The notes beneath the pieces are model-generated. The model worked only from the letters and a program-made list of their open reading frames with translations, searched no databases and was not told where the DNA came from. Positions 6,073 to 35,033 of a stretch of 64,000 bases of DNA are shown here, in pieces. The stretch is from Balneolaceae bacterium (GTDB lineage Bacteria; Bacteroidota; Rhodothermia; Balneolales; Balneolaceae), in contig JAEPNO010000003.1 of the NCBI GenBank assembly GCA_017643365.1, positions 62,001 to 126,000 on the forward strand, given 5' to 3'. Position 1 is the first letter of the stretch. The number at the start of each line of letters is the position of its first letter. The position numbers and the translations under genes were made by a program.

Positions 6073-6674
6073 AAATTCGGCAACCGATGTTTAACCTGCT
6101 TCCAATCTTCAACGGTATCCACATCGTTTAGCTCTTCTAACAGCTGATAAGACAAACCGAGTTTATTAACTATTTCAATTGTTTGTTCAGCAACCGATGA
6201 CGTACTCCATGAAATAGATTCAAATAGTTGAGGATGGAACTTGCTCATTCCCAATAAATAATAGCCACCATCTCTAGCCGGACCGATTACTACATCTGAA
6301 TTTAAGAGCTCCTCAAATGCTTGTTTTATGTGATTGGGCTCCAGTTCGGCACAATCACTACCAATAATCACAACCGCCGATGAGTTCTGTTCTTCAAAAG
6401 TTTTACGAAAGGCATTTTTCATCTTTTCTCCCAAATCATCGCCAAATTGTAGTCTTTTTGTGAAATCTTCATTGGTCCACATATCATTTTTATCAATGTT
6501 CGAAGAATACCAAACGCTTCTATTTACATCTATGGATAAAGCCACATCTTTGGTATACGCCAATAGCTGAAGATAGACTACCAAAGCGGCTTCATTACCA
6601 ATGCTAACGGCTAAACGTGTTTTCGCTGTTCCCAGCACCGGGTTTTTTACAAAAATGATGAGATCGTTTTGCAT
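6069..6674 (-). CDS. DUF2064/TIGR04282 glycosyltransferase-like protein
   Basis: A 201-residue nucleotidyl-/glycosyltransferase-fold protein. It has the family opening (IIFVKNPVLGTAKTRLA), the IGSDCAEL motif and the GPARDGGYYLLG signature, all as expected for the TIGR04282 (DUF2064) family. The family is the usual partner of TIGR04283 transferases and is thought to supply or transfer an activated sugar. It is first in a two-gene operon with the family 2 transferase, overlapping it by four bases. Nothing near it shows what product the pair makes. Confidence 0.85.
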   Translation of the reverse strand: MQNDLIIFVKNPVLGTAKTRLAVSIGNEAALVVYLQLLAYTKDVALSIDVNRSVWYSSNIDKNDMWTNEDFTKRLQFGDDLGEKMKNAFRKTFEEQNSSAVVIIGSDCAELEPNHIKQAFEELLNSDVVIGPARDGGYYLLGMSKFHPQLFESISWSTSSVAEQTIEIVNKLGLSYQLLEELNDVDTVEDWKQVKHRLPNL

Positions 6675-7217: not shown

Positions 7218-7226
7218 TAATCTGAA

Positions 7227-8084
7227 TTAAAGAATGATACTTTGCCCTTCTTTGGCAAAACCGACAGATTCATAATACTGGCTGTGAGAAGCTTTTATTT
7301 TACTGTCAAGATTAGTTAAATAATCATCGTCGCTGTCAGGGTCGTGATGAGTAAGCACCATATGCTTAACATTGCACCCTGCAGTTATTTCTAACACCTT
7401 CTCGTACGACGAATGCCCCCATCCTTCGCGCTCTTTGTATTGTTTATTATCGAATTGCGCATCGTGAATCAACACATCAGCCCCATCAACAAAAGCACAG
7501 AATTCTTTAATGAAATCTTTAGAATCCTGAGAATTATCATGGGGAAGTTCATTATCAGGGGCGATAATTATGGTTTTCCCATTAATAGTAAAGCGAAAAA
7601 TTGCAGTCTGCACGGTATGCTTAGCCCACATATAATCCACCGAATACCCTTCCATATTTAATTTACCGGGTTGAAAGGTCTCACAATCCATATCAGCATC
7701 CAGCATATCCATGGTTACCGGAAAGAATGTGTTGGACATATGACCTTGTAAAATCTCCTTACATCCGGATTGATCTTGTGGAGGCAAATACACCCTAAAC
7801 CAAGAATTTTCTTTATAAAACGGTTTAAAAAACGGAAAGCCTTGTAAGTGATCCCAGTGTGGATGTGTGATAAATATTCTGCCACATATTTTTGAATCCC
7901 CATTAAGTAAGTGATTCCCGAGGTTTCTGATACCCGTACCACAATCAATAATCAGTAACTCACTTAATGAATCTGACTCGATTTGAAAACACGTTGTATT
8001 CCCCCCGAAAATCATGTTTTCAGAGTTCGCACAAGGTGTAGAACCCCTTACACCCCAAAATTTTATTTTTACTGATTCCGCCAC
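7227..8084 (-). CDS. MBL-fold metallo-hydrolase
   Basis: A 285-residue metallo-beta-lactamase-fold protein. The opening KIKFWGVRGSTPCANSEN is typical of the cyclic-phosphate/phosphonate diesterase-like subgroup. The metal-binding motif THPHWDHLQG lies near residue 75. Further likely ligands are HT near residue 136, the Asp in IIAPDNE, and the late LTHHDPDSDDDY histidines. It probably hydrolyses a cyclic phosphodiester or related ester in the cytoplasm, as there is no signal peptide. It is convergent with the small exported protein (9 bp apart) and stands alone, so the substrate cannot be deduced from context. Confidence 0.8.
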   Translation of the reverse strand: MAESVKIKFWGVRGSTPCANSENMIFGGNTTCFQIESDSLSELLIIDCGTGIRNLGNHLLNGDSKICGRIFITHPHWDHLQGFPFFKPFYKENSWFRVYLPPQDQSGCKEILQGHMSNTFFPVTMDMLDADMDCETFQPGKLNMEGYSVDYMWAKHTVQTAIFRFTINGKTIIIAPDNELPHDNSQDSKDFIKEFCAFVDGADVLIHDAQFDNKQYKEREGWGHSSYEKVLEITAGCNVKHMVLTHHDPDSDDDYLTNLDSKIKASHSQYYESVGFAKEGQSIIL

Positions 8085-27249: not shown

Positions 27250-28035
27250 ATGCCGATGTCTGAACCAATGACTTTTATTGATTATTCGCGAAGCACTCTG
27301 GGATTACTCCTCTTCGTGATCTTATTTATTATTGCTATCCCACTTATTCTCGTAATTATCATTCTATCGTTCGGCAATGCCACCGATTTTGTAATCCGAA
27401 CATTTGCACCCGGAATTGCTCGCCCCGTTCTTTGGGTAAGCGGCATTAATTTTAAAGTAAAACAACACGGTAAACGCTACGATGGCCCGGCAGTGGTAAT
27501 AATAAACCATTCTTCCACGCTCGATATTCTAACCATGATGGCAATAGGGATGGATAAAATTCGACTTGTGGCAAAATGGGAGCTCCAATATTTCCCATTC
27601 TTCTTTATTGTTGGCCGACTAACCGGACAGGTTTTCATTAAGCGCCAAAAAAGGGAACAAGCGATTAATACGCTTAAAAACACTTACGAACGCTTGCAAA
27701 AACAACGCCTTTCGGTGATGGTTGCCCCCGAAGGATCTCGTAAGCACGAAGGAATTATTGGTCCATTTAAAAAAGGGGCGTTTCGCATGGCCATCGATTT
27801 GGGTTATCCAATTGTGCCCATCTATTTTGAAGGAAATCGAGCGTTAAGTTTTGGTGGATCAATGATGACCCGAGGTGGCAACCTTACCGCACACATTCAC
27901 CCTCCCATCGATACTTCCGATTGGAGCCTGGATACCATAAATGATCACATCAAAGAAGTCCGCGATCTTTATTTGGGCTGGACCGGGGTTACCGACGAAT
28001 CAAATTCTGGGCACGAGGTATTGAACGCTAAATAG
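27250..28035 (+). CDS. plsC: 1-acyl-sn-glycerol-3-phosphate acyltransferase-like (PlsC)
   Basis: A 261-residue membrane-bound acyltransferase. An N-terminal hydrophobic helix (LGLLLFVILFIIAIPLILVI) precedes the catalytic NHSSTLD (NHX4D) and the substrate-binding VAPEGSRK motif. It esterifies lysophosphatidic acid in phospholipid synthesis, or a related lysolipid. Its last 36 bases overlap the end of egtD, which runs on the other strand. Confidence 0.88.
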   Translation: MPMSEPMTFIDYSRSTLGLLLFVILFIIAIPLILVIIILSFGNATDFVIRTFAPGIARPVLWVSGINFKVKQHGKRYDGPAVVIINHSSTLDILTMMAIGMDKIRLVAKWELQYFPFFFIVGRLTGQVFIKRQKREQAINTLKNTYERLQKQRLSVMVAPEGSRKHEGIIGPFKKGAFRMAIDLGYPIVPIYFEGNRALSFGGSMMTRGGNLTAHIHPPIDTSDWSLDTINDHIKEVRDLYLGWTGVTDESNSGHEVLNAK

Positions 28036-28941
28036 CTTGTTTGTGTCGGTCCATACTTGTTGAACATCAAACCAAGGCGATACGATTCCGGAGAACTCTT
28101 CGAGCGTATATTTATGCGAATTTTCGGTGTGGATATATTCGCCCTTTTCAACCGTAAAGGTGTGATCATCAATCTTAACCTGATGCGTCGTTTTTGCATA
28201 CAATCGCATTTCGATTCGACCTCTTTCCTCTACCCATAGCGCTTTATGCTCGAATAGATCCGGATTGAAATCCGCCCCAATTTTACGATTCAAATGGATC
28301 AACAAATTCTTGTTGAAGGCAGCAGTAATTCCTTTCGAATCGTTATAGGCAGCTTCAAGAATTTCGATGTCTTTTTTTAGATCAACACCAATCAGCACTC
28401 CTCCTTTTTTCCCAACGATATCGGCGATCACCGAAAAAAAGCGTTGTACGGTATTGAGTTTAAAATTCCCGATGGTCGACCCCGGAAAGAATACAATTCG
28501 GCGAGCATCCGGGTGAGTGTCAGGCAACTCAAACGGACGAGTGTAATCCGTTGCCAATGGTTCAATGTCGATGTTCGGATATTCCTCTCGCAACTGATCA
28601 GCCACCTTAAACAAGTAATCTCCTGAGATGTCGATAGGCACATAGCATTTTATCGAATCCATCCTGTCGAGCAGAATTCGGGTTTTCTCACTGCTACCGC
28701 TGCCCGGCTCAATCAATTCGACATTAGCACCGAGCTTGTCGGCCATGTCCTCTAAATTCGATTCCAGAATCTTACGTTCTGTTCGGGTAGGATAATATTC
28801 CTCCAGCCGCGTGATCTCATCAAAAAGCTGAGAGCCTTTTTCGTCGTAGAAATATTTACTCGGTAACTGCTTGGGGGTGCTCTTCATCCCCGTTACAATT
28901 TCTTCGATGATGGTATTCGTTTTCGTCAAAGTTTCTTCCAT
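28000..28941 (-). CDS. egtD: L-histidine N-alpha-methyltransferase
   Basis: A 313-residue SAM-dependent methyltransferase of ergothioneine synthesis that trimethylates histidine to hercynine. The opening PKQLPSKYFYDEKGSQLFDEITRLEEYYPTR, the SAM loop LIEPGSGSSEKTR and the RIVFFPGSTIGNF motif match EgtD. It follows egtB on the same strand with a 2-bp gap, so the two form an operon. Its 3' end overlaps plsC by 36 bases. No egtC or egtE is present nearby. Confidence 0.93.
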   Translation of the reverse strand: MEETLTKTNTIIEEIVTGMKSTPKQLPSKYFYDEKGSQLFDEITRLEEYYPTRTERKILESNLEDMADKLGANVELIEPGSGSSEKTRILLDRMDSIKCYVPIDISGDYLFKVADQLREEYPNIDIEPLATDYTRPFELPDTHPDARRIVFFPGSTIGNFKLNTVQRFFSVIADIVGKKGGVLIGVDLKKDIEILEAAYNDSKGITAAFNKNLLIHLNRKIGADFNPDLFEHKALWVEERGRIEMRLYAKTTHQVKIDDHTFTVEKGEYIHTENSHKYTLEEFSGIVSPWFDVQQVWTDTNKLFSVQYLVPRI

Positions 28942-28943
28942 AT

Positions 28944-30224
28944 TTATCGTGCCAGGCGAATACCACTAAATTGCCACCGTGCATTGGCATGGAAGAAATT
29001 GCGATAAGTTTTTCTGATGTGAGATTTCGATGTGGCGCATGATCCACCACGCAGTACATATTGATTGGCCATAAATTTCCCGTTGTACTCGCCCAAAGCA
29101 CCGGGTAACGGTTTATAGTTTGGATAGGGAGAATAGCTGCTCATCGTCCATTCCCAAACATCGCCGTACATTTGTGCTAAATTCCCCTTTGAAGCTTCCA
29201 GCGAAACAGGATGAAATTGATCGTTATCTACAAAATTGCCTTCAATCTTCTGATCTCCACATGCGTGCTCCCACTCCTGCTCGGTGGGTAATCGGCATCC
29301 TTTCCATCTGACAAAGGCATCCGCTTCAAAATAACTAACATGCGTTACCGGTTCGTTTTCATTCACTTTTTTGGAACCCGCTAGCGTGAAATTAATCCAT
29401 TCCCCATCACGCTTAAACCAATATAAAGGTGCTTTCCATTCCTCTTGCTGCACCGTCGACCAACCCTCATCCAGCCAAAGCTCCGATCGCTCGTAACCGC
29501 CGTCGTTCATGAATTCCAGATATTCGCCATTTGTAATGAGGCGATTAGCCAGCTCAAATTGCTGCACAAAGGTTTGATGCTGCGGATGCTCATTATCATA
29601 AGTAAACTCTTCGCCGGTATTCCCGATCTCGACAATGCCTTCATCAAACGAAATCCAATCTAACGCTGAAGGCAATACCTTTTCGGAATCGCTAATTTCG
29701 CGATAAGTGGGCAGTAACGGATTTTGAGCTAGCAAGTACTTGATATCGGTAAGAATCAGTTCCTGATGTTGTTGCTCGTGATGGTTCCCGATTTCGAGCA
29801 CTTTCGCAGCTTCCACCCACACGGCTTCATCGCAATTTTCGATGAAATTCTGAACTTGATCGTTTACATATGATCGATATTCAAATACTTCAGCAACGGT
29901 GGGTCGGGATAACATTCCCCGTTTTTCCCGACTAAATGGCACTCCTGTTTGCAAATAATAAGAGTTAAAAAAATACGCATACTGGGGATGCATGCTTTCG
30001 AAGGATGGATCAAATTTGCCCAGAACAAAAGTCTCGAAAAACCAGCTGGTATGTGCCAAATGCCACTTTGCCGGGCTTGCACTTTCCATAGGTTGAATTA
30101 CGAAATCCTCCGTTTCGAGGGGCTCGACCAAACAATGGGTGAAGGAACGGATTTTCAGAAATTGTTCGAGTATATACTCTCTGCTCAGTCTTTTTGAACT
30201 AACACTCTCGGCAATAGAATTCAT
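28944..30224 (-). CDS. egtB: Ergothioneine biosynthesis protein EgtB
   Basis: A 426-residue non-haem iron sulfoxide synthase that couples hercynine to a thiol donor with oxygen. The N-terminal DinB-like half carries the metal-binding histidines in HHEQQHQE and an upstream WHLAHTSWFFETF. The C-terminal half is formylglycine-generating-enzyme-like (RLPTEQEWEHAC, WEWTMSSY, LRGGSCATSKSHIRKTYRNFF). It uses cysteine or gamma-glutamylcysteine depending on the class; the sequence alone does not tell. It is the first gene of the egtBD pair. Confidence 0.93.
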   Translation of the reverse strand: MNSIAESVSSKRLSREYILEQFLKIRSFTHCLVEPLETEDFVIQPMESASPAKWHLAHTSWFFETFVLGKFDPSFESMHPQYAYFFNSYYLQTGVPFSREKRGMLSRPTVAEVFEYRSYVNDQVQNFIENCDEAVWVEAAKVLEIGNHHEQQHQELILTDIKYLLAQNPLLPTYREISDSEKVLPSALDWISFDEGIVEIGNTGEEFTYDNEHPQHQTFVQQFELANRLITNGEYLEFMNDGGYERSELWLDEGWSTVQQEEWKAPLYWFKRDGEWINFTLAGSKKVNENEPVTHVSYFEADAFVRWKGCRLPTEQEWEHACGDQKIEGNFVDNDQFHPVSLEASKGNLAQMYGDVWEWTMSSYSPYPNYKPLPGALGEYNGKFMANQYVLRGGSCATSKSHIRKTYRNFFHANARWQFSGIRLAR

Positions 30225-30576: not shown

Positions 30577-31074
30577 AATACTGTACTCTAGAGTTATTAC
30601 TCCAAATCTATACTTTTTTTATAAATAACAGTACAAACTTAAAAAATATTAATGTACGATTGGATATACGATTGCATACAAAAAAATATGAATTCGAATA
30701 ATCTACGTTCAATAATTGGTTTAATATTGTTTAGAATATTAATGCATACGACTTCTAAATCTTAGCCTTATCTTTTAAAATGGGAACATCTTTTGACTGA
30801 TTTCTTCAGTATTTGGAGAACGAAAATGAATCCAAATTTAGAATCAATCAACATCGTTTGGGCAGCCATTGAATTGTTACGAGACCATATTCACTCATCG
30901 GTCAGACGAGTAATTCGTAAGACAGATTATCTAAGTACTCACTATGCAATTTCTGTTCAGTTGATACATGAATTGGTCCCGACGCTATCCATTAAAACTG
31001 TAAAAAAATTATCTTGCGTTGAAATAAACTAGATTCTACTATAAACTCTGATAAATCAGATCATTAGATAGAAC
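30577..31074. other. AT-rich gap before the restriction-methylation gene
   Basis: A 498-bp AT-rich stretch. It holds the promoters of the divergent small basic gene and the type IIG gene and one short open frame (see the following entry). I see no tRNA or clear palindrome. Confidence 0.4.
30826..31032 (+). pseudogene. Possible short remnant resembling an HsdM N-terminus
   Basis: A 68-codon frame from an ATG at 30826 (or 79 codons from a TTG at 30793). The segment INIVWAAIELLRDHI followed by charged residues resembles the start of type I methylase subunits (N-terminal helix with W-x-x-A/I-x-x-LR). It ends abruptly, so if real it is a relic. The evidence is thin, and it could be chance. Confidence 0.25.
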
Positions 31075-34000
31075 ATGGCTTTATTTCAGAATTCGGTTTT
31101 AAAAAAATACTTAGCAGGGGTAAATGAAAATGAACTTAATGCTGCCTGGGAGGTCTTTACCAGCCATTTTCATAACCCTGAGATTCAAGCCAATATCAGA
31201 GAAGCAAAGGAAGAATCTTATCAAGAAGGATTTTTGGATGACTTGTTTGTAAAGGTTTTAGGATACACCAAAAACCCGAATCCCAACTATAATTTAGTTG
31301 TAGAGCAAAAGAACCTTACGGATTCTAAAAAAGCCGATGGCGCTATGCTCGATAATGATAAAGTACGTGGCGTCATCGAATTAAAGGGCACAGAAACCAC
31401 CGATTTATCGAAAGTGGAGACGCAAGCATTTGGTTATAAAAACAAGCAACCGGATGCCGTTTATGTAATCATTTCTAATTTCGAGAAGCTTCGATTCTAC
31501 ATCGATAATGCCGTTGATTTCGTTGAGTTCAACTTATTCACTTTAACAATTGAAGAATTTAAAGTTCTCTGGCTTTGCCTAGGCTATCCGAATTTTATTA
31601 AAGGTTTACCAAAAAAGATTAAAGAAGCTTCGCTTACCGAAGAAGAAAACGTCACCAAGAAACTTTACAAAGATTACTCAGCCTTTAAAAACGACATCTT
31701 CGAAAGCGTAAAGAAGCACAATCCTACCCACGACAAGCTTCTTTTGTTCAAAAAAACACAGAAACTGTTAGACCGATTTCTGTTCATATTCTTTGCCGAA
31801 GATCGAAACCTGCTCCCACCCAATTCCATCAAAAAAATTATTCAACAATGGCACAAACTTAAAGAACTGGATGAGTACAGACCTCTGTACGATCGTTTTG
31901 TAAAGTATTTCGGATACTTAAACCAAGGCAGAAACCTACCCGGTAAAGACGAGATTTTTGCCTACAACGGTGGTTTATTCGCTGAAGATGAATTGTTGAA
32001 TTCCCTCAAAATTTCAGATGATCTCCTTTACAAACACACTTTACAGCTCAGCAAATACGATTTTGAAAGTGAAGTAGATGTAAACATTCTCGGGCATATT
32101 TTTGAGCATTCCCTTAATGAAATCGAGGAAATCAGTGCCGAGTTAAAAGGCGAAAAAATTGATACTTCAAAAACTCGCCGAAAGAAAGACGGAGTATTCT
32201 ATACGCCCAAGTACATCACCAAGTACATTGTTGAACATACGGTTGGGAAGCTTTGCGAAGAAAAAAAGGAAGCACTGGGACTGAAAGAAGATGAATATGT
32301 TCCAAATCGCCACAAGAAAACAAAACAGACGCTACTCGACACCTTAGATACTTACCGGGAATATCTGTTCTCGTTAACCATTTGTGATCCGGCGTGTGGA
32401 AGTGGAGCTTTTCTCAATCAGGCATTAGAGTTTTTGATAGAAGAACATCGATTTGTGAGTGAATTGGAAGCAAAGTTGCTGAACCGACCATATGCCGTGT
32501 TTGATGTAGAATCTCAAATTCTAGAGAGAAACCTGTTTGGCGTTGATATCAATGAAGAATCGGTTGAGATTGCCAAACTAAGCCTGTGGCTGCGAACCGC
32601 ACAAAAAGGGCGCAAACTCACCTCGCTGAATAACCATATCAAATGTGGAAACTCGCTGATTGACGATCCCGAAGTGGCGGGCGACAATGCTTTTAAATGG
32701 GAAAAAGAGTTCCCCAATGTGTTCCGCCAAAAAGAAAAGCAAGCCTTCCATGTTACTTGGGTAACGCATAATGCGCGCACTTCGCAACGGATGATAGAGT
32801 ACAAGGTGAAGAAGGGCGAAGCTATCTGGCTGGATAAAGAACTGGAAATGGTGGTAGCCAAAGAGCTGGCAACGATTATCGCTGAAGATAAACTGAATGT
32901 GTTGAATTGGAATATCTGCGGTGATCATGTGCATATGTTATTGGCCTGCGAGCCTGATGAGCTGGCAAATATTGTGCGGAAGCTGAAAGGACGAAGTGCT
33001 CAAAAAACGAAGGAATATCTAAAGGTCCCTAAGGAGGAGGTCTTTCATTTATGGGCACAGAAATTCAATCGCAAACCTGTTGATGATGAAGACGGACTTT
33101 CGAATGTGTACAATTACATTCAGCATAACCGCGATAAGCACAACCTACCCCTCAACAAGGAGTTGCAACTCCTTGTCTCGGAGGTGTGTGTTAGCTACGA
33201 AAAAGCCTTCCAGCCGGAATATTCCGGCGGTTTTGATGTGGTGATTGGGAATCCGCCTTATGTGAGACAGGAGTTATTTGGGGATATGAAACCCTATTTT
33301 GAAAGTACTTTTAATGTTTATGAAGGTACTTCTGATCTGTTTGCCTATTTCTATGAACAATCCCTTCTACTTCTCAAAGATCAGGGAGTTTTGGGGTTTA
33401 TTTCTAACACATTTGATAAAACTAAAGCAGCGATTAAACTCAGGAAATACCTTTCTGAACAAACGACTTTTGAAAAATATGTGGATTTCACTGAAGTTCA
33501 AATATTTGAAGGAGCAACAACTTATCCAATCATAATAACAGCTTCAAATAAAACGACTAATAACAACCTGTTCGATTATGTTAAAATCCCAAAGAGTAGC
33601 CAATCAAAAGTTATTGACATTGAATCTCAAGTACACTCAACGGTAGATCAAAGCTCATTGAATCATAAAAACTGGGATTTTAACTCAGTTGAAGAAATAG
33701 AAATCATTAAGAAGCTTAAGTCACACTCTGAAATTGTAAAGCTTTTTGGGAAGAGCTATAGAGGGATTGTCACTGGGTTTAACGAAGCATTTATAATTGA
33801 TCGTGAAACCAAAGTGAAGCTTGAAAATGAGCATATAAGTTCTAAAGAACTAATAAAGCCCTTGTTTGAAGGAAAAGATTTAAGCAAGTGGAATACTCCA
33901 AATACTGATAAGTATATTATTTTCACCAGAAGAGGGACGATTATTGATGATTATCCCGCGATAAAAAGGTATTTGGAACAATATAGAGAAAGGTTAACGC

Positions 34001-34713
34001 CTAGAAACTCACCAGAAATTAAGGTTGGGAGAAAATCTGGCCCTTATAAATGGTACGAAATACAAGATGCTGTGGACTATTATGAAAAATTTGAAATGCC
34101 AAAAATTACTTGGCCAAACCTTCAGTCTGAAAGCAAATTTTCCATTGATCAAAAAGGATATTACATCAATGCACCGTCAGTAATTTTACCCGTTGGAAGT
34201 AAAACAATACTTTGCATTATCAATTCTAAGCTTATATGGTTTTTTCTAAAATCAATTTGCGTAGTTAGAAGTGGCGGTTACATTGAAGTTAAGCCACAAT
34301 ATTTCGAACAGATCCCAATTCCTGAGTTAAGAAATGAAGAAGAATTTGAGAAGCTTGCCACTCAAATAATTAATCTAACATCAGAGATTCAAAATGTTCA
34401 AGGAAATTTCCGCCAGTTACTCCAATCCAAATTCGACATCGAGAAACTCAGTAGGAAACTCGAAAACTGGCATGAGCTTTCGTTCAAGCAATTTTTGGTG
34501 GAGCTAGAAAAAGCACGAAAGAAGGCAACAAAAGCTTATGAGCCTTTGCCATTACAAGAACAAGCCGAATGGATGGACTATTTCAACCAACAAAAAGCCA
34601 AAGCCGACGAACTCAAGGCTCAAATCACCCAAACCGACAAAGAGATTGATGCGATGGTGTATGAGCTATACGGCTTGACGGAAGAAGAAGTCAAGATTGT
34701 GGAGCAGTCGTGA
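31075..34713 (+). CDS. Type IIG restriction-methylation enzyme with inserted Y1 transposase domain
   Basis: A 1212-residue enzyme. The nuclease part has Asp88 and Glu102-x-Lys104 (GVIELKG), a PD-(D/E)XK arrangement. The adenine methyltransferase core follows, with motif I DPACGSGAF from residue 438 and catalytic NPPY at 726-729. C-terminal regions form the target-recognition domain and coiled coil. Between motif I and NPPY lies an additional domain (about residues 557-710) with a His618-Val-His620 pair in GDHVHMLL, an LKGRSAQKTKEYL helix and Tyr681 in NYIQHN. This is the HUH/Y1 transposase fold. Cutting and methylating the same site in one polypeptide is typical of Eco57I relatives. The recognition region (33300-34400) is more AT-rich than the rest. 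Confidence 0.88.
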   Translation: MALFQNSVLKKYLAGVNENELNAAWEVFTSHFHNPEIQANIREAKEESYQEGFLDDLFVKVLGYTKNPNPNYNLVVEQKNLTDSKKADGAMLDNDKVRGVIELKGTETTDLSKVETQAFGYKNKQPDAVYVIISNFEKLRFYIDNAVDFVEFNLFTLTIEEFKVLWLCLGYPNFIKGLPKKIKEASLTEEENVTKKLYKDYSAFKNDIFESVKKHNPTHDKLLLFKKTQKLLDRFLFIFFAEDRNLLPPNSIKKIIQQWHKLKELDEYRPLYDRFVKYFGYLNQGRNLPGKDEIFAYNGGLFAEDELLNSLKISDDLLYKHTLQLSKYDFESEVDVNILGHIFEHSLNEIEEISAELKGEKIDTSKTRRKKDGVFYTPKYITKYIVEHTVGKLCEEKKEALGLKEDEYVPNRHKKTKQTLLDTLDTYREYLFSLTICDPACGSGAFLNQALEFLIEEHRFVSELEAKLLNRPYAVFDVESQILERNLFGVDINEESVEIAKLSLWLRTAQKGRKLTSLNNHIKCGNSLIDDPEVAGDNAFKWEKEFPNVFRQKEKQAFHVTWVTHNARTSQRMIEYKVKKGEAIWLDKELEMVVAKELATIIAEDKLNVLNWNICGDHVHMLLACEPDELANIVRKLKGRSAQKTKEYLKVPKEEVFHLWAQKFNRKPVDDEDGLSNVYNYIQHNRDKHNLPLNKELQLLVSEVCVSYEKAFQPEYSGGFDVVIGNPPYVRQELFGDMKPYFESTFNVYEGTSDLFAYFYEQSLLLLKDQGVLGFISNTFDKTKAAIKLRKYLSEQTTFEKYVDFTEVQIFEGATTYPIIITASNKTTNNNLFDYVKIPKSSQSKVIDIESQVHSTVDQSSLNHKNWDFNSVEEIEIIKKLKSHSEIVKLFGKSYRGIVTGFNEAFIIDRETKVKLENEHISSKELIKPLFEGKDLSKWNTPNTDKYIIFTRRGTIIDDYPAIKRYLEQYRERLTPRNSPEIKVGRKSGPYKWYEIQDAVDYYEKFEMPKITWPNLQSESKFSIDQKGYYINAPSVILPVGSKTILCIINSKLIWFFLKSICVVRSGGYIEVKPQYFEQIPIPELRNEEEFEKLATQIINLTSEIQNVQGNFRQLLQSKFDIEKLSRKLENWHELSFKQFLVELEKARKKATKAYEPLPLQEQAEWMDYFNQQKAKADELKAQITQTDKEIDAMVYELYGLTEEEVKIVEQS
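32741..33212 (+). mobile_element. In-frame Y1/HUH transposase-like insert within the type IIG gene
   Basis: The 10-bp AAGCCTTCCA occurs at 32741-32750 and again at 33203-33212, exactly 462 bp (154 codons) apart. It flanks a segment coding for a HUH-type transposase domain (FHVTWVTHN start, HVH, Tyr681). Removing the segment would join NVFRQKEKQAF to QPEYSGGFDVVIGNPPY, the usual spacing of Eco57I relatives. The reading frame is kept and catalytic residues look intact, so it is either a domesticated or a still active element. Confidence 0.75.
33155..33176. repeat. Perfect 22-bp palindrome inside the insert's coding region
   Basis: acaaggagttg is followed by its exact complement caactccttgt. 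It lies at the 3' end of the transposase-like insert and codes for part of NKELQLLV. Its design matches the intergenic palindromes at 34752 and 34872. Confidence 0.85.
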
Positions 34714-34751: not shown

Positions 34752-34773
34752 ACAAGGGCTTACAAGCCCTTGT
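34752..34773. repeat. REP-like palindrome 1
   Basis: acaagggctt (34752-34761) and aagcccttgt (34764-34773) are perfect inverse arms around ac. The centre and outer bases agree with the palindrome in the insert (33155), while one inner pair differs on both arms together. Confidence 0.85.
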
Positions 34774-34913: not shown

Positions 34914-34948
34914 CAAAAAAAGCTCCCCAAGAAATCTTGAGAAGCTTT
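34914..34948 (-). terminator. Terminator after tRNA-Val
   Basis: aaagct (34919-34924) pairs with agcttt (34943-34948), with an inner caag/cttg stem. The A-run at 34914-34920 gives a U-run on the minus transcript, ten bases past the tRNA end. Confidence 0.75.
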
Positions 34949-34958
34949 GCAATTTATG

Positions 34959-35033
34959 TGGGCGATGAGGGACTCGAACCCCCGACCCCCTCGGTGTAAA
35001 CGAGGTGCTCTAAACCAACTGAGCTAATCGCCC
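34959..35033 (-). tRNA. tRNA-Val (anticodon TAC)
   Basis: The minus-strand sequence folds as a tRNA. The 7-bp acceptor stem is GGGCGAT/ATCGCCC. The D arm starts at AGCTCAG. The anticodon arm is CCTCG-TTTACAC-CGAGG, with TAC reading valine codons. The T arm is GGGGG-TTCGAGT-CCCTC, and the discriminator is A. CCA is not encoded. Terminator at 34914-34948. Confidence 0.95.

What the first reader, a model, noticed from the sequence alone, without database searches (positions are those of the whole stretch)
31075..34713. HUH/Y1 transposase domain embedded in a restriction-methylation enzyme
The sequence shows an in-frame 462-bp block between methyltransferase motif I and NPPY. It encodes a full Y1 domain with His618-x-His620 and Tyr681. 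Both flanks share the 10-bp AAGCCTTCCA. Deleting the block restores the usual Eco57I-type spacing. One interpretation is a nested mobile element using the restriction gene as host. Another is a domesticated module that adds single-strand DNA nicking or hairpin recognition to the methyltransferase. I cannot tell whether this architecture is already known.
Basis: partly seen in the sequence, partly recalled or inferred. Interest (0 to 1): 0.85.

Follow-up and report, generated by a model that had tools for sequence, protein, structure and literature searches.

The report
Transposase domain inside a restriction enzyme
A DNA-cutting transposase domain, together with the short mirror-image DNA repeat that always travels with it, sits in frame inside a bacterial restriction-modification enzyme, and relatives show that such units have entered several different restriction enzymes, so a mobile DNA handler is riding inside a phage-defence protein.

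Summary
The 1212-aa ORF at 31075-34713 is a type IIG restriction-modification enzyme. Its methyltransferase is interrupted, just before motif IV (NPPY), by a 167-aa HUH/Y1 transposase domain (window 32725-33225). The domain is Pfam Y1_Tnp, and its AlphaFold model matches IS200/IS605 and REP-associated transposases. Four homologues have only two residues at that spot.

The 10-bp 'target repeat' is chance-level and lies inside the unit, not at its edges. The palindrome is the real signature. All 13 related Y1 units examined carry near-perfect palindromes (about 0.01 expected each). In the window genome and four other carriers, true palindromes were found only in or beside the restriction gene. 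In two carriers they are dispersed, in one of them in frame inside unrelated genes. A free-standing relative is a palindrome-Y1-palindrome unit. In another carrier the unit, bracketed by palindrome pairs, sits at a different site in a different type IIG enzyme. Y1 and host trees conflict, and palindrome type follows the Y1 branch.

Best reading: a RAYT-like (REP-associated) transposase with cognate palindromes, inserted in frame as a nested mobile unit. In the window lineage it is kept under purifying selection (dN/dS about 0.06). No activity has been shown. I found no published description.

The parts
31075..34713 (+). Type IIG restriction-modification gene, 1212 aa, with an embedded Y1 domain
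   Evidence: ORF; Eco57I, MmeI_Mtase, TaqI_C and Y1_Tnp; PDLC03609 type IIG
31075..32724 (+). N-terminal nuclease, helical and first methyltransferase part (aa 1-550): nuclease-like D..x(n)..ELK (KADGAMLDNDKVRGVIELKG) and motif I DPACGSGAF
   Evidence: Translation; PDLC03609 matches 1-552 continuously; nuclease motif read by eye
32725..33225 (+). In-frame Y1 (HUH) insert, aa 551-717: DHVH (His618, His620), Tyr681
   Evidence: Boundaries from homologues without it; Pfam; AF2 pLDDT 89.1, pTM 0.85; Foldseek hits to ISDra2, IS608 and TnpA-REP 4er8
33155..33176 (.). 22-bp perfect palindrome ACAAGGAGTTGCAACTCCTTGT inside the insert, coding NKELQLLV; likely cognate site of the Y1 domain
33226..34713 (+). 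Motif IV (GGFDVVIGNPPY) and C-terminal target-recognition part; alignment to relatives breaks down directly after NPPYV
34752..34773 (.). Palindrome ACAAGGGCTTACAAGCCCTTGT 39 bp after the stop codon
34871..34892 (.). Palindrome GCAAGGGCTTGCAAGCCCTTGT 158 bp after the stop codon
30670..34943 (.). Variable island holding the R-M gene and both downstream palindromes; absent from same-genus genome G123, where other genes fill the interval
34958..35033 (-). tRNA-Val (tac) next to the island boundary

Best explanation
The gene encodes a type IIG restriction-modification enzyme that carries, in a loop of the methyltransferase just before motif IV, an autonomous HUH/Y1 transposase domain of REP-associated (TnpA_REP/RAYT-like) character. 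The domain came with its own short cognate palindrome (22-24 bp, free of stops in the frames seen) as an in-frame nested mobile unit. Inferred mechanism: the domain binds the hairpin that the palindrome forms when the DNA is single-stranded (for instance during replication), uses the HUH histidines and Tyr681 to cut and rejoin the strand, and so copies or moves its palindromes, and in some lineages the whole palindrome-Y1-palindrome unit. A unit of 24 nt adds eight codons without a stop, so insertions inside genes can be translated through. Riding inside a restriction gene gives the unit a carrier that is itself mobile and hard to lose. SHOWN by sequence: domain, fold, insertion, conserved catalytic residues, purifying selection, palindromes in every unit, near-exclusive co-occurrence in the genomes searched, dispersed in-frame palindromes in one carrier, different sites and hosts. 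INFERRED: hairpin recognition, nicking, current mobility, advantage of the carrier.
For: Domain and fold: Y1_Tnp; profile hits ISDra2 and IS608 transposases in the PDB; AF2 pLDDT 89 with Foldseek hits to ISDra2, IS608 and TnpA-REP 4er8. Insertion: homologues without it. Constraint: dN/dS about 0.06 for the insert against L004, palindrome codons without amino-acid change; catalytic residues invariant. Palindrome: in all 13 units, 0.00-0.02 expected each; L013 has changed both arms (AACAAGGGGTTGCAACCCCTTGTT) at the cost of E->G and L->P, so the palindrome rather than the peptide is kept. Co-occurrence: pattern searched in 14 genomes; near-perfect palindromes only in carriers of ACAAGG-type units; in G000, G026, G050, G395 and G417 they lie in or beside the R-M gene, in G832 and G866 they are dispersed. 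In G832, 10 large ORFs were found with a dispersed palindrome translated through: three adenylate cyclases, a glycosyltransferase, Por-tail proteins, a molybdopterin oxidoreductase, a DNA methylase. Mobility: free-standing palindrome-Y1-palindrome unit L090; L046 unit at a different site of a different type IIG enzyme, bracketed by two palindromes on each side; Y1 and host trees conflict, AU p 0.002, 0.006 and 7e-6, and palindrome type follows the Y1 clade.
Against: No biochemical data. In the window lineage the insert has diverged together with the host gene, so it has been resident for long and no recent movement is seen there. The genome holds no dispersed palindromes and no second copy of this Y1. 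The palindromes lack the GTAG-type foot of classical REPs as described in PMC6006769. The clades tested by AU were named after the trees were seen, and L046/L047 are long branches. G592 (L021) carries a different palindrome and none of the ACAAGG type, and G1118 carries ACAA-type and other palindromes in different genes, so one-to-one matching is not complete.
Confidence: 0.7

Rival explanations
1. Domesticated module: the Y1 domain no longer moves anything and serves the restriction enzyme, for example by nicking single-stranded or hairpin phage DNA or by helping target recognition; the palindromes are leftovers or regulatory hairpins.
For: Long residence, co-divergence with the host gene and dN/dS about 0.06; only local palindromes in the Balneola-type carriers; the domain sits next to motif IV and the target-recognition part.
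Against: Close homologues lack it at the same spot; free-standing and differently placed units exist; the palindrome is maintained even at the cost of amino-acid changes; palindromes are dispersed in two carriers.
Confidence: 0.35
2. The Y1 domain mobilises the whole restriction gene: palindromes outside the gene act as element ends, as in IS605-type elements with an accessory gene.
For: Palindromes flank the gene on both sides in L013/G395 (14367, 17761 and 19346 on one contig) and lie 3' of it in the window, L004 and L005; the gene and its palindromes form a variable island.
Against: No upstream palindrome in the window, L004 or L005; no second copy of the Y1 domain in the genome; the island lies beside a tRNA gene, a common integration site for other elements.
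Confidence: 0.15
3. Ordinary target-recognition or spacer insertion that merely resembles Y1, or an assembly artefact.
For: The site tolerates other inserts (72-aa coiled-coil-like insert in L009).
Against: Significant Y1 matches in sequence and fold, invariant HUH and Tyr residues, the same architecture in independent assemblies and isolates.
Confidence: 0.02

Closest known systems
TnpA_REP / RAYT (REP-associated tyrosine transposases), especially subclass 2.4 of Quentin et al. 2018 (PMC6006769)
   Same: Y1 HUH fold; one to two copies per genome; palindromes beside the gene and, as in subclass 2.4, in frame inside the transposase reading frame, often between HUH and Tyr; dispersed palindromes in some genomes.
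   Different: Embedded in frame in a restriction-modification enzyme; motif pattern DHVH / W[AT] / YIxxNRxKH instead of NH[IFV]H / WQ / YIxNNP; perfect palindromes without a GTAG foot; NCBIfam RAYT model only 44 bits against a cut-off of 80. That study discarded 'unexpectedly long proteins' as fusions or annotation errors.
IS200/IS605 TnpA (ISDra2, IS608)
   Same: Closest solved relatives by profile and fold; single Tyr, HUH.
   Different: No IS with defined ends in the window, no TnpB seen beside it, single copy; NCBIfam IS200 model 39 bits against cut-off 55.
Type IIG restriction-modification enzymes (Eco57I, MmeI)
   Same: Nuclease, helical spacer, N6-adenine methyltransferase and TaqI_C specificity domain in one chain.
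   Different: Extra 167-aa transposase domain before motif IV.
Rickettsia palindromic elements (RPE; reviewed in PMC10969869)
   Same: Palindromic units inserted in frame in unrelated protein genes, as in G832.
   Different: RPEs are about 150 bp; here 24 bp, with a candidate transposase identified.
Inteins (own knowledge)
   Same: In-frame genetic passenger inside an enzyme.
   Different: No splicing domain found; the domain would stay in the protein.

Membership tests
Y1 HUH transposase superfamily | HUH motif, downstream catalytic Tyr, Y1 fold | tested here: met
   Y1_Tnp above cut-off; invariant D-H-x-H and Tyr681; AF2/Foldseek
TnpA_REP / RAYT | Passes the curated family model | tested here: not met
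   NF047646 44.3 bits, cut-off 80
TnpA_REP / RAYT | Flanked by or associated with cognate palindromes | tested here: met
   13 of 13 units; co-occurrence by genome; flanked free-standing unit
TnpA_REP / RAYT | Palindromes dispersed in the host genome | tested here: inconclusive
   Yes in G832 and G866, no in the window genome, G026, G050, G395, G417
TnpA_REP / RAYT | GTAG/GTGG-type tetranucleotide at the hairpin foot | tested here: not met
   Flanks of dispersed copies show no constant foot beyond the palindrome (by eye)
TnpA_REP / RAYT | Binds and cuts palindrome hairpins | not testable with these tools
   Needs protein
IS200/IS605 insertion sequence | Passes the IS200 family model | tested here: not met
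   NF033573 38.9 bits, cut-off 55
IS200/IS605 insertion sequence | Multiple near-identical copies with defined ends | tested here: not met
   Single copy in the genome
Type IIG restriction-modification enzyme | Nuclease, N6 methyltransferase and specificity domains in one chain | tested here: met
   PDLC03609 1078 bits; Pfam; nuclease motif by eye
Type IIG restriction-modification enzyme | Cuts and methylates a defined site | not testable with these tools
   Needs protein or methylation data
Intein | Splicing (Hint) domain | tested here: not met
   No such Pfam or NCBIfam match

The most novel reading that the evidence does not exclude
A class of in-frame nested transposase units (Y1 domain plus 24-bp palindrome of eight readable codons) that live inside DNA methyltransferases of defence systems as non-spliced passengers, spread their palindromes in frame through host genes, and have done so repeatedly in different restriction enzymes and, with another RAYT type, in a DUF1156 methylase (L033).
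Probability: 0.45. Interest if true: 0.88.

Novelty: new variant of a known kind. Interest (0 to 1): 0.78.

Why it matters
How REP palindromes spread, and why single-copy RAYT genes persist for so long, are open questions. Here transposase and candidate sites are physically joined in one gene, in some genomes restricted to it, in others dispersed in frame, which makes hairpin recognition and in-frame palindrome insertion directly testable. It also shows a way for a transposase to be fixed: inside a restriction enzyme, next to the target-recognition part. If the domain is active, these restriction enzymes carry a strand-processing activity for which I found no published assay. It also offers a candidate mechanism for short palindromes inserted in frame in protein genes.

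Tried and rejected
10-bp target-site duplication: rejected. Viral contigs: no relatives. Plasmids and phages: only remote IS200-type hits for the Y1 domain; plasmid type IIG relatives match in two pieces covering 87% (absence of the insert not read base by base). Ordinary free-standing Y1 genes (L028-L043) carry none of these palindromes, so the palindrome belongs to this subfamily. 967-aa AlphaFold model: mean pLDDT 66, too weak to place the insert in the enzyme; its best PDB hits are BREX methyltransferases and MmeI. L007 (no Y1, but an in-frame palindrome) led to a check of its genome: it does carry two other Y1-bearing type IIG enzymes, but with palindromes of another sequence, so this is only partial support. 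Five insert-free rows as one clade: not rejected (p 0.085), so one gain or several within the window's enzyme family cannot be decided. Literature: searches for the architecture gave nothing relevant.

Full report
THE OBSERVATION. The ORF 31075-34713 encodes 1212 aa. Pfam finds Eco57I, MmeI_Mtase, TaqI_C and, between them, Y1_Tnp at 5e-12; PADLOC places it in a type IIG family with 1078 bits.

BOUNDARIES. Homologues L006, L007, L008 and L010 read VF-xx-GGFDVVIGNPPY (or close to it) where the window has 167 residues. The insert is therefore 32725-33225. The AAGCCTTCCA repeat lies inside it, is not a conserved repeat in L004 or L013, and repeats of that length are expected in shuffled sequence. 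It is not evidence of a target-site duplication. L009 has a different, 72-aa insert at the same place, so the loop tolerates inserts.

FOLD. AlphaFold2 on the eight-row alignment gives pLDDT 89.1 and pTM 0.85; the 30 PDB matches with E below 0.001 are all Y1 transposases, ISDra2, IS608 and the REP-associated 4er8 among them. A profile search of PDB sequences agrees.

THE PALINDROME. The insert contains ACAAGGAGTTGCAACTCCTTGT (33155). It is identical in L004 and L005, within a run of codons that shows no synonymous change in L004 although synonymous change is frequent around it. In L013 both arms have changed together, altering the peptide from NKELQLLV to NKGLQPLV. L020 holds two copies of AACAAGGGGTTTAAACCCCTTGTT. 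All 13 Y1 units examined carry one to five near-perfect palindromes, against 0.00-0.02 expected. In the whole window the only three with arms of at least 10 and loop of at most 2 are this one and two directly 3' of the gene.

GENOME-WIDE. The pattern ACAAKG-N10-CMTTGT was searched in 14 genomes. Genomes without the Y1 unit gave only non-palindromic chance hits. Window genome, G026, G050, G395 and G417: true palindromes only in or beside the restriction gene. G832 and G866: 23 and 34 hits, mostly near-perfect palindromes on many contigs. G592, whose unit has a different palindrome, has none. In G832, ten of the dispersed copies lie inside large reading frames (394-958 aa), nearly all of unrelated genes, and are translated through; in an adenylate cyclase the alignment with solved relatives has a nine-residue gap at or next to the palindrome peptide. 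In G866 most are intergenic or in short frames.

OTHER CARRIERS. Further embedded units: L020 and L021, L045, L046 and L047, L088, and L104 and L106, two in one genome. All but L046 are at the window's site. In L046, a different type IIG enzyme, the unit sits directly after motif I and is bracketed on each side by two AACAATGGAGCATGCTCCATTGTT palindromes 30 bp apart. L090 is a free-standing relative: palindrome, Y1 gene with an internal palindrome, palindrome. L048 and L091 are disrupted free-standing relatives.

TREES. In the host-enzyme tree L021 pairs with L045, and L046 with L047; in the Y1 tree L021 pairs with L047, and L045 and L046 fall with the ACAAGG-type units. Holding the host pairs together in the Y1 tree is rejected (AU p 0.002 and 0.006), as is the Y1 pair in the host tree (7e-6). 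Caveats: long branches, and clades named after the trees were seen. Within the window's own enzyme family the number of gains is undecided (p 0.085).

SELECTION AND RESIDENCE. Between the window and L004 the insert has pN 0.067 and pS 0.60, dN/dS about 0.06; it diverges roughly in step with the flanking enzyme. So it is old in this lineage and constrained, not a fresh insertion and not decaying.

LOCUS. Against same-genus genome G123, collinearity breaks at 30670 and resumes at 34944, beside tRNA-Val 34958-35033. The R-M gene and both 3' palindromes lie in this variable interval; G123 has other genes there, including a different free-standing RAYT-like gene.

LITERATURE. Quentin et al. 2018 (PMC6006769) describe in-frame palindromes inside tnpA_REP genes (subclass 2.4) and discarded unexpectedly long proteins as fusions or annotation errors. 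PMC10969869 reviews Rickettsia palindromic elements inserted in frame. No paper in the held library was found that describes a Y1 domain inside a type IIG enzyme; subscription papers are largely absent from it.

VERDICT. A RAYT-like Y1 transposase with its own palindrome, nested in frame in a restriction-modification enzyme. Works-like claim: strong by sequence. Membership: Y1 superfamily yes; RAYT family proper not met by the curated model and foot motif. Activity untested.

Noticed in passing
L033 1-2673 (-), G440: A second, different case: a classical RAYT (PNHVHVLIE...YIENNPVKAGLV) in the same reading frame as a DUF1156 methylase, with REP-like peptide repeats (GSAAFQAA...GKDAGAPS).
   Followed up: partly
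L049-L065 (genome G832): 24-bp palindromes inserted in frame in unrelated genes (adenylate cyclases, glycosyltransferase, Por-tail proteins, molybdopterin oxidoreductase, DNA methylase).
   Followed up: partly
L007 6088-6115: An enzyme without Y1 has an in-frame palindrome (AACAATGGGTTGCAACCCATTGTT, peptide NNGLQPIV) in the linker before RKKDGVFYTP; its genome has two other Y1-bearing type IIG enzymes with another palindrome type.
   Followed up: partly
window 33265-34500 against L004 and L005: Target-recognition part changes abruptly directly after NPPYV between otherwise similar enzymes (28% identity over the next codons), next to the Y1 insert and its palindrome.
   Followed up: no
L009 6163-6477: A 72-aa coiled-coil-like insert occupies the same spot as the Y1 domain.
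   Followed up: no
L005 about 7226-7277; L010 about 6239-6254; L013 about 7924-7943; L045 oriented about 2020: Reading frame of several relatives is split by a frameshift or stop; error, decay or programmed is not known.
   Followed up: no
L100 7268-7804 (G123): The same tRNA-Val interval in a same-genus genome holds a free-standing RAYT-like gene (YIHFNPVVRGF) instead of the R-M gene.
   Followed up: partly
window 28000-30224: Two adjacent minus-strand genes resemble EgtD and EgtB of ergothioneine synthesis (from memory, not tested).
   Followed up: no
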